A stretch of DNA of 64,000 bases from Liolophura sinensis. Taxonomy: Eukaryota > Mollusca > Polyplacophora > Chitonida > Chitonidae. Position numbers and translations under genes: made by a program. Shown in pieces: positions 24,201 through 27,200 of this stretch (the first letter of the stretch is position 1; each line of letters starts with the position of its first letter). Where the stretch lies: the NCBI RefSeq assembly GCF_032854445.1, contig NC_088307.1:3720001-3784000 (forward strand), written 5' to 3'. The notes below the pieces were generated by a model. The model worked only from the letters and a program-made list of their open reading frames with translations, searched no databases and was not told where the DNA came from.

Positions 24201-27200
24201 AGCTGAGTGCCCAGCAAGGCAGCAGAAAGTACCAATTTTTAAAACCTTTGGTATGACCCGACCCAGGTGTGATAATGGGGTCTCCCGACTTGGAGGCGAA
24301 TGCTCTAACCGACAATGAAGTATCATGTCAAAGTCACCAGATATGACTCCCCACCCATGCACATTATACTGACTTGCAGCAGCAAGTACCATTTTTAAAA
24401 CCTTTGGTATGACCCGACCCAGGTGTGATAATGGGGTCTCCCGACTTGGAGGCTGATGCTCTAACCAATACTCCATTGAAGCAGTCACCTGCAAAACTGT
24501 AGACTCTTGCTCCACACCCAACTTACTGATCTTGTACAATGAATCATGACCCGCACCCATCCTACTGATCTTGTACAATGACTCTTGCTCCACACCCGCC
24601 TTACTGATCTTGTACATTGACTCTTGCTCCACACCCACCTTACTGATTTTGTACAATGACCTGCTCCGTACAATGACTTGCTCCACACCCACCTTATTGA
24701 CCTTGTACAATGACTCTTGCCTCACACCCACCTTACTGATCTTGTACAATGACCCTTGCTCCACACCCACCTTACTGCTCTTGTACAGTGACTATTGCCC
24801 CACACCCACCTTATTGATCTTGTACAATGACTCTTGCCCCACACCCACTTTACTGATCTTGTACAGTGACTTGCTCCCACCCACCTTATTGATCTTGTAC
24901 AATGACTCTTGCCTCACACCCACCTTACTGATCTTGTACAGTGACTCTTGCCACACACCCACCTTACTGATCTTGTACAATGACTCTTGCTCCACACCCA
25001 CCTGACTGATCTTGTACAATGACTCTTGTGCCACACTCATCTTACTGATCTTGTACAATGACTCTTGCCCCACACCCATCTTAATGATCTTGTACAGTGA
25101 CTTGCTCCACACCCACCTTACTGATTTTGGTACAATGTCTCTTGCCTCACACCCACCTTACTGATCTTGTACAATGACTATTGCCCCATACCCACCTTAC
25201 TGATCTTGTACAATGACTCTTGCTCAACACCCACCTGACTGATCTTGTACAATGACTCTTGCCCAACACCCACCTTACTGATCTTGTACAATGACTACTG
25301 CCCCATACCCACCTTACTGATCTTGTACAATGACTCTTGCCCCACACCACCAGTGTCCTTGAAAAAATCATGTGCCGGGAATGTTCTGTTGATGTCACGA
25401 GATATTGTCTGCTCATTTGGAGATTCCTGTCAACATGACATAATAATAAAATGCAGGTTATAAAGTTCGAAAACTTTTATCTATTTGATGTGTTATGAAA
25501 ACAATGCATCCTTAAGACGTACATATACCTTTAAGAAATTTGATATTGCCATTAGAGACTCTATTCACTTACATTTTAATGTAAATGTAGTTGTGAAGTT
25601 AAAGGAGGGAAACCTCAACACATTACAAAATACCCATACAACTGTCTGGACGCAAGGCTGCTGAGAAGTCACTAAGAGCGGATTCCAAAATGTGGCCTCA
25701 TGAGAATGAGTGGTCTCTAGCCACAACTCTTAAATAACTTGGCCAGAGGAGCCATTATAAGCTGATTCCAAAACATCGCCTCTTTGTTTCATTTATTTAT
25801 TTGATTGGTGTTTTACACCCAACTCCAGAATATTTCACTTTTCACCGGGGGAAACCCACGACTATCGGCAGCTTGCTGGAAAACTTTCCAACGTACGACC
25901 GGAGTGAAAGCCAGCATCTTTATTTGAAGGTAAGTAGTCACCTGCCAAAACTCCTTAAACAGCTTGACCAGGGTTCTCACAAAGAGCCGATTCCAAGACC
26001 AGGTATCCTTGGTCAAGAACAAGTGGTCTCCAGCCACAACAGTTTACACAACTTGGTCATGAGTTTGAAACCGCTACCATCCAGACTAACCTTGCCAATA
26101 AGGACTCTATAGGCATCCATCAGTTCTGTGTTGTTAGCACAGTTAGTGAGGAGCTGCCAAACCTCTCCTCGCAGAGCCTCGGGAATACCCTTCCTGCAGA
26201 GGCCTGTGACCTGTTTGGGGCGCTGGGCGAGGTTCTGGTGCCAGCGGGTCAGCACATCTCGCCATGCCTCCAGCAGGTTGTCGTCTGTAACCTCTTTACT
26301 AACTGAGCCAGACCCACTCAACAGAGGTTCATCGCCATCTGAAAACAGGAGACTGAGTTATATTGACAGTCTGCAGACAAGGACAAGTTCTTCCCAGATA
26401 TGTGACAAGGTACTATAAAACAAAGAGTACAGTTTTAAGGGAAATAAACAAAGAAAAGCTCACCCTCCGCCCCACCCCCACCCCAAAAAAAATTACATTT
26501 TTTGAGCATGTACATTTTATATTTCTTAACAGCCCCTCTATTTCAAGTATATTTTCTGTCTATGGTCAGAAATATTTGTAAATGATGTGATTAATAAAGA
26601 TGCTGGAAATGCAGGATCGGCTTAGCGTCCCCAATTCGGAGGGGTTATGCTTTACCTGATTCTGGGTCCTCCATATCCACAGGTGTCTGAATTTCCTCAG
26701 GTAATGTTTTGGCTGAGGGGATGTTCAGTGTGAGTTTCTTCCTCTTGTCTATGTCGGTCTGACTCTGTACATTCATCACCTCAAACTCCTGCTCTCCCAC
26801 ACGGCTACTCTCAATCTGATAACATACAACATCTCTAAACGTTAAGGCATTCTCACTATCCCTAATTTTTAGGCAAATAGCAGGTCATTTTAGCCCATCA
26901 AAATTTTTTTCTAAAGTTTCCTCAAAGCAGAAAGAAACCATTCAAAAAATGTAGCTAACCATTTCAGCCCTGAAAATTTGAAACATCTACTTAACCAGAA
27001 AAAATGTTACTTGAAATCTACCTTGTGAAACATTTAATTCCTTTATTGCTTATGAAATTCAAGTACATTTAGATTACTGGACAAGTTTTACCTTACACTG
27101 GACACTGCCAGTCATATTCCATTGAGTGGTTGACAACAGTTACCATATGTGTAAGGTAAATACTGTAATAATTCAAATTCAACTACATGAAGACTGCCAG

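What the first reader, a model, noticed from the sequence alone, without database searches (positions are those of the whole stretch)
24490..25426. A coding exon end and its splice donor amplified into a 22-copy minisatellite inside the RABGAP1 TBC domain
The array is not random intronic DNA. Its unit is the last 10 or so codons of exon 10 plus the first bases of the intron, 39 bp = 13 codons, so the frame is preserved and most copies carry their own donor (AAG-GTGGGT). The spliceosome therefore faces one real donor and up to about 20 near-identical ones downstream. Using the second donor or a later one would put [13 protein letters not shown]-like repeats between the arginine finger (R573) and glutamine finger (Q610) of the GAP domain. 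It would also run into a TAG in copy 2 (25295-25297), giving a truncated GAP or nonsense-mediated decay. Copy number could vary between individuals and act as a length-dependent switch on productive splicing. That regulatory role is inference.
Basis: partly seen in the sequence, partly recalled or inferred. Interest (0 to 1): 0.85.

Follow-up and report, generated by a model that had tools for sequence, protein, structure and literature searches.

The report
Repeated splice site in chiton RABGAP1
In a chiton, the end of one protein-coding exon and its splice signal have been copied about twenty times into the following intron; such arrays were known mainly from lancelets and one human gene, and here they seem common, probably as tolerated by-products rather than a switch.

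Summary
On the minus strand, RABGAP1 exon 25426-25313 is followed directly by a 39-bp minisatellite (to about 24502). Its unit is the exon's last 36 nt plus 3 nt of the intron; 14 decoy donors AG|GTGGGT follow the real one. No second locus was found. The intron predates the array: an EVI5-like paralogue has it at the same position and phase, without an array.

The insert/switch reading is not supported. Each of the 14 decoys retains the copy-2 TAG, so no repeat insert can be translated; donor columns are no better conserved than the rest.

The array fits a described kind, the "mirages" of lancelet genes; human IFI6 is similar. The genome is the chiton assembly published as Liolophura japonica, corrected to L. 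sinensis. Such arrays are frequent there: 5 of 94 donors placed in exons sampled without regard to repeats, in chaperonin and DEAD-box genes, and in a selected set OGDH, ABCC and Pol III genes. Most likely they are by-products of rampant minisatellite birth, tolerated because the first donor is used (inferred; no RNA seen).

The parts
26091..26338 (-). RABGAP1 exon upstream of the array exon, donor AAG|GTTAGT
   Evidence: coordinates; PDB match across the junction
25313..25426 (-). RABGAP1 exon ESPNEQ...[12 protein letters not shown] (38 codons, phase 0) with the DINRTF segment; its last 39 nt (25351-25313) are the first copy of the repeat
   Evidence: PDB matches
25307..25315 (-). authentic splice donor AAG|GTGGGT
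24502..25312 (-). intronic part of the 39-bp exon-end/donor minisatellite: 21 anchored copies, several with indels, one 17-nt fragment, and a partial last copy
25295..25297 (-). in-frame TAG in the first intronic copy, retained by each of the 14 downstream donors
24633..25276 (-). 14 decoy donors [AC]AG|GTGGGT, first intron base at 25273, 25234, 25195, 25156, 25116, 25001, 24962, 24923, 24884, 24809, 24770, 24731, 24692, 24638
23483..23557 (-). next RABGAP1 exon [14 protein letters not shown]... (holds the YCQG motif), acceptor TTTTGCAG, donor GTAAGT

Best explanation
The array is an exon/intron-boundary minisatellite of the kind called 'mirage' in lancelets. Shown: a 39-nt block made of the last 36 nt of an old, conserved exon and the first 3 nt of its old intron is repeated in tandem about 21 times in the intron, with the exon intact as the first copy. 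Inferred: copies arose by slippage or unequal exchange, in a genome where such arrays form at a high rate in introns and across their borders. Inferred: the spliceosome mostly uses the first donor (25313); any of the 14 later donors gives an mRNA with a stop after five extra codons, between the two TBC catalytic motifs, so it would be a small loss by nonsense-mediated decay and not a new protein. Inferred: arrays that reach into an exon persist where the intact exon lies at the array's edge, so they are tolerated by-products and not devices.
For: Unit and exon are the same sequence (first intronic copy 87% and the consensus of the copies 95% identical to the exon copy). Direction: the exon's last 12 residues match human RABGAP1 (9 of 12) and RABGAP1L (10 of 12), so the exon is the source. 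The intron is older: an EVI5-like paralogue has an intron at the same place and phase, with no minisatellite in the 1301 bases fetched. No second locus. Recurrence: donor arrays at 5 of 94 placed donors in samples chosen without regard to repeats (a sixth automatic hit, in ADH, was rejected on reading), against 0 of 335 mismatched controls for the 67 donor words of the first three families; homology-supported exon ends in 5 of 16 strict-donor arrays and 2 of 8 loose-motif arrays. Repeats are everywhere: 185 of 1842 random positions in the TBC, ADH and chaperonin loci have a near copy within 1.2 kb downstream. No sign of selection on donor columns. Of 10 other donor arrays measured, only one (66-nt unit, L058) keeps frame without a stop. 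Lancelet mirages are reported not to interfere with regular splicing (passages).
Against: No RNA was available, so first-donor use is not shown. In human IFI6 two downstream repeat units serve as donors (one sentence of PMC4526556). The strict donor triple CAGGTRAGT is 4 times as frequent as its reversed control (996 against 249 overlapping matches), which could also mean that arrays favour donors or that donors in arrays are kept; the looser triple shows little excess (1598 against 1481).
Confidence: 0.75

Rival explanations
1. Poison-donor switch: competition between the real donor and 14 decoys sets the share of RABGAP1 transcripts that carry a premature stop and are degraded, tuned by array length.
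For: 14 decoys have the same GTGGGT as the real donor and all lead to the same TAG. IFI6 shows that repeat donors can be used.
Against: Donor columns are not more conserved than the rest; the same architecture recurs in unrelated genes with various periods and frames; lancelet mirages are reported not to interfere with splicing.
Confidence: 0.12
2. The repeated G-rich, U1-like copies act together as an intronic enhancer that strengthens recognition of the first donor.
For: Copies have GTGGGT and G runs. A C. elegans minisatellite is over-represented near alternative splicing regions (abstract).
Against: Nothing measured here separates this from neutrality; no extra conservation of donor columns.
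Confidence: 0.1
3. Intron gain: the tandem duplication itself created this intron.
For: Duplication of AG/GT segments is a proposed route to introns, and mirages were linked to it in lancelet globins.
Against: The EVI5-like paralogue has an intron at exactly this position and phase, and the intron has further sequence and its own acceptor outside the array.
Confidence: 0.02
4. Assembly artefact.
For: Tandem arrays are error-prone in assembly; the copy number may be off.
Against: Copies differ individually by substitutions and indels, the assembly is from PacBio HiFi reads, and the pattern recurs at independent loci.
Confidence: 0.02

Closest known systems
'Mirages': minisatellite-like tandem duplications of exon-intron boundaries in lancelet genes (Adh3, globins BflGb6 and BflGb9, others; PMC3087553, abstract and passages read; Canestro et al. 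2002 seen only as a citation, not held)
   Same: Tandem copies that span an exon boundary and carry AG/GT signals, with the authentic exon kept; donor and acceptor sides both occur.
   Different: Here in a mollusc, whereas the mirages in the papers I read are from cephalochordates; a donor-side 39-bp unit with about 21 intronic copies; a sampled frequency of about 1 in 20 donors. Length polymorphism and undisturbed splicing were reported for lancelets, not testable here.
[quoted passage not shown] 1995; title seen as citation; not held; one sentence on donor use in PMC4526556)
   Same: A minisatellite whose repeat units are potential donors behind an exon.
   Different: In IFI6 two downstream repeat units are used, giving three mRNAs; in RABGAP1 the downstream donors all meet a stop, and their use is unknown.
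Internal tandem repeats in human genes of segmental duplications, some at exon-intron boundaries (PMC2812944, passages read)
   Same: Minisatellites (units of 30 bp on average), some lying at exon-intron boundaries and affecting splicing.
   Different: Those cases concern recent paralogues and formation of new introns; here gene and intron are old.
PGBD5 tandem repeats over splice sites in lancelet (PMC3902484, passage read)
   Same: Tandem repeats that include splice sites, thought not to interfere with splicing.
   Different: Longer units (60 and 108 bp), three copies for the 108-bp one.

Membership tests
Mirage (exon-intron boundary minisatellite) | Tandem units that span an exon-intron boundary, with exonic and intronic parts | tested here: met
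   Unit = 36 nt exon + 3 nt intron
Mirage (exon-intron boundary minisatellite) | Many repeated units keep AG/GT splice signals | tested here: met
   14 downstream AG|GTGGGT
Mirage (exon-intron boundary minisatellite) | Authentic exon intact at the array edge | tested here: met
   Open frame and PDB match through both junctions
Mirage (exon-intron boundary minisatellite) | Normal mRNA splicing despite the copies | not testable with these tools
   No RNA data on hand
Mirage (exon-intron boundary minisatellite) | Length polymorphism or somatic instability | not testable with these tools
   One assembly only
Intron created by tandem duplication | Intron absent at that position in relatives that lack the duplication | tested here: not met
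   EVI5-like paralogue has the intron without an array
IFI6-type alternative donor minisatellite | Downstream repeat donors used in mature mRNA | not testable with these tools
   No RNA; all 14 would carry the TAG

The most novel reading that the evidence does not exclude
Chitons carry thousands of exon-boundary minisatellites: about 1 in 20 splice donors in this genome is followed by tandem copies of itself and of its exon end, also in genes of basic cell function (chaperonin subunits, DEAD-box helicases, Pol III, OGDH). This would be a natural mass experiment on how the spliceosome picks the first of many identical donors, and a large standing pool of raw material for alternative donors and new introns, in a phylum for which I found no report of it.
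Probability: 0.6. Interest if true: 0.75.

Novelty: new member of a known kind. Interest (0 to 1): 0.5.

Why it matters
One array in RABGAP1 is a curiosity. But if about 5% of donors in a 609-Mb genome sit at the head of arrays of near-identical donors and the genes still work, donor choice must be strongly biased to the first site, which can be read directly from RNA data of the same species. It also extends a phenomenon described for lancelets to molluscs, and gives many arrays of different age to test how minisatellites cross exon borders.

Tried and rejected
1. Translated repeat insert: rejected, all 14 later donors retain the TAG.
2. Intron gain: rejected through the EVI5-like paralogue.
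3. Dispersed satellite family: not supported, the three matches all lie in this array (the tool warns that very common words are skipped).
4. Arrays prefer donors: undecided. The loose donor triple gave 1598 matches against 1481 for the reversed control, the strict triple 996 against 249. These are overlapping matches dominated by long arrays, and the strict motif is expected to be commoner as real donors, so the excess does not prove a preference. Donors in arrays (5 of 94) are not more frequent than random positions (185 of 1842).
5. Lancelet origin of the window: considered after finding the mirage papers, rejected. No GFP family match (weak evidence: no control genome rang), eight mollusc haemocyanin units, and scaffold lengths and number equal to the published chiton assembly.
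6. Mirages in Adh, the first lancelet case: none seen at the 8 ADH exons sampled; one automatic hit was an intronic repeat with a misplaced donor.
7. Acceptor side: TTTTNCAGG triple 373 against 110 control. Of 9 arrays fetched, one (L034) ends in a long open reading (no family search made). Automatic acceptor placement found copies at 3 of 79, but its placements were poor; by reading, L036 is clear, L037 and L058 exon 1 share only a few exon bases.
8. Dropped before counting: TBC 28 of 33 hits used (a long single-exon frame, three hits of the window itself and C13:2228373 left out); chaperonin 46 of 50 (three hits in two long frames, and C1:48453530, left out); ADH 8 of 11 (weak hits elsewhere); DEAD 36 of 49 (long frames and hits with several stops left out). 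Donors could be placed in 94 of these 118; the other 24 were not examined further. For one chaperonin exon (C8:53405971) the script put the donor one unit too far; the exon's own donor gives the same result. Strict arrays not counted as exon-derived: 11 of 16, among them L015 (80-codon open frame, no family match) and L018 (weak fucosidase match E 0.033, unit mostly intronic).
9. One search used a script that picked the best-matching copy, not always the next one, and mis-set phase and period for RABGAP1; for RABGAP1 only one search is used.
10. Papers opened for precedents that turned out not to be: earthworm metallothionein introns with minisatellites (PMC12783039, passages) and gastropod haemocyanin introns (PMC7931591, passages); neither passage describes repeated exon ends.

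Full report
What is there. On the minus strand of the window lies a RABGAP1 gene. Three consecutive exons were placed exactly: 26338-26091, 25426-25313 and 23557-23483. Their joined translation (132 residues) matches human RABGAP1 (4nc6, E 4.3e-58) and RABGAP1L (3hzj, E 4.5e-53) without a gap across both junctions. Directly behind the middle exon a 39-bp minisatellite runs to about 24502. Anchoring gives 22 copies counting the exon's own; one is a 17-nt fragment, others have small indels. The consensus GTGGGTGTGGGGCAAGAGTCATTGTACAAGATCAGTAAG is the exon's last 36 nt (12 codons, [12 protein letters not shown]) plus GTG of the donor. Human RABGAP1L shares 10 of these 12 residues and RABGAP1 9 of 12 (alignments), so the exon is the source and the array the derivative.

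Age of the intron. Another gene in the same genome (G000:C13:8635413, 65% identical to the exon) reads GQESLFNVMK|AYSLHDREVGYCQG, with an intron at the same place and phase, donor AAG|GTAAAC, and no minisatellite in the 1301 bases fetched. I take it as an EVI5 relative (name recalled). The intron therefore predates the array, and the array did not make it.

What later donors would do. AG|GTRNGT occurs at the real donor and 14 times downstream, all with GTGGGT. Extending the exon to any of the 14 retains the TAG at 25297-25295, after five extra codons; the frame is kept only to the fifth donor. The outcome is truncation between the DINRTF segment of this exon and the YCQG segment of the next (TBC arginine and glutamine fingers; roles recalled), presumably followed by decay of the mRNA.

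Selection. In the 16 in-register copies used (of 21 intronic ones) the nine donor columns are 5.6% diverged and the other thirty 6.5%; random columns are as conserved in 48% of draws. There is no sign that decoy donors are kept up; the GT pair itself is diverged at 12.5% of sites. Third codon positions are less diverged (3.4%) than first and second (7.7%), so there is no sign of coding constraint either.

Which organism. The window's genome has 609,464,459 bases in 632 contigs; contigs C1 and C2 are 96,433,062 and 28,395,274 long. The published chiton assembly has 632 scaffolds, 609,495,693 bases, a longest scaffold of 96,433,062 and a scaffold_10 of 28,395,274 (PMC11068029, passages). Its species was later corrected from Liolophura japonica to L. 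sinensis (PMC12441733, section read). Eight mollusc haemocyanin matches lie in a row at C8.

Recurrence. A pattern of three strict donors CAGGTRAGT with gaps of 15-45 nt gave 996 matches in G000 against 249 for the reversed pattern. In 5 of 16 the array starts at the end of an exon with clear homology: a SNF2-family helicase (E 1.6e-17 to entries named 'Helicase-like protein'; Mot1/BTAF1 by recall), an iron-hydrogenase-like protein (1.4e-12), 2-oxoglutarate dehydrogenase (4.6e-20), RNA polymerase III RPC1 (4.7e-8) and ABCC/MRP (4.4e-10). Of 8 arrays from a looser pattern, 2 do: an ankyrin protein (9.8e-10) and a class-III aminotransferase (6.5e-9). The looser pattern itself shows little excess (1598 against 1481).

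Frequency without selection on repeats. I took exons by protein family: TBC 28 of 33 hits, ADH 8 of 11, chaperonin 46 of 50, DEAD-box 36 of 49. A script placed a donor in 94 of the 118 and asked whether the 22 nt around it (16 exon, 6 intron) recurs downstream with at most 4 mismatches (within 1.2 kb, or within the shorter fetched stretch). It does in 6; one, in ADH, proved on reading to be an intronic repeat with a misplaced donor. The remaining 5 of 94 are real: two in one chaperonin gene (66-nt unit; and an irregular unit of 47-60 nt), one in another (109-nt unit, about 97 nt of it exon), and two in DEAD-box genes (65 and 97 nt, the latter ending in LDEAD). The 67 donor words of the first three families against other introns gave 0 of 335. 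Extrapolation to thousands of cases genome-wide is mine; the number of introns was not measured, and five cases in four genes leave a wide margin. Random positions in the loci of the first three families lie in such repeats in 185 of 1842 cases, so borders are not hit more than other places. The simplest account is that minisatellites form widely in introns and borders are not spared.

Acceptor side. A TTTTNCAGG triple gave 373 matches against 110. Of 9 arrays fetched, one ends in a long open reading GYKPTVFYPKKPSKK... (L034). Among the family samples L036 shows four copies, the exon's own included, of an acceptor with exon start before a TBC exon; L037 and L058 exon 1 share only a few exon bases.

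Frames. In 10 other donor-side arrays, read-through to a later donor keeps the frame without a stop in one only (66-nt unit of L058). TRF periods include 31, 40, 44, 46, 48, 52, 66 and 109. The 13-codon period of RABGAP1 is probably chance.

Comparison with what is known. Lancelet genes carry 'mirages', minisatellite-like tandem duplications of exon-intron boundaries, on both sides of exons. They are length-variable, and Adh3 data and globin RT-PCR suggested that they do not interfere with splicing (PMC3087553, abstract and passages; PMC3902484, one passage). Human IFI6 has a minisatellite that supplies several donors, two of them downstream repeat units (PMC4526556, one sentence and the citation; the original, Turri et al. 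1995, is not held). Boundary repeats are also reported in human genes of segmental duplications (PMC2812944, passages). The RABGAP1 array meets the structural features of a mirage; splicing and polymorphism could not be tested. No paper on such arrays in molluscs showed in the listings of searches; these are capped lists over open-licence PMC papers, so this is weak evidence of absence.

Mechanism and weight. I hold that the array is a tolerated by-product (0.75). The strongest doubt is the lack of RNA: IFI6 shows that repeat donors can be used, and a low, constant drain by decay would be invisible here.

Noticed in passing
window 23928-24480: Directly after the array lie two or more copies of a tRNA-like repeat (GGTTAGAGCAT..CCTCCAAGTCGGGAGACCCC..CACCTGGGTCGGGTCATACC); TRF gives a 214-bp period at 23928-24373. 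Probably a SINE.
   Followed up: no
window 25343-25345: The exon reads GGVGQ where human RABGAP1 and RABGAP1L have GGDGQ; the codon GTG equals the array consensus, so conversion from the array into the exon is possible.
   Followed up: no
window 36414-37078, 1817-3190, 942-1483: Large minisatellites of 17, 80 and 19 bp; the 17-bp unit contains CAGGTAA on the plus strand. Their relation to exons was not worked out.
   Followed up: no
L058 (G000:C8:53404000-53412800): A chaperonin gene with two donor-side and one acceptor-side boundary array.
   Followed up: partly
L052 (G000:C6:62004800-62007900), about 244-538: A 149-bp tandem duplication seems to hold a whole small TBC exon with its acceptor and donor, in two copies.
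   Followed up: no
L026 positions 684-1214: A 61-bp array, found by chance beside an acceptor-pattern array, whose unit reads like an exon end (WIFTAITDTVAWNTLPR) followed by GTAAGT.
   Followed up: no
G000:C8:37880506-37891931: Eight mollusc haemocyanin matches in a row, each in an open frame above 400 codons.
   Followed up: no
G000:C6:33317851, 33340079, 33363998: Three similar DEAD-box matches about 22-24 kb apart, perhaps a tandem gene family.
   Followed up: no
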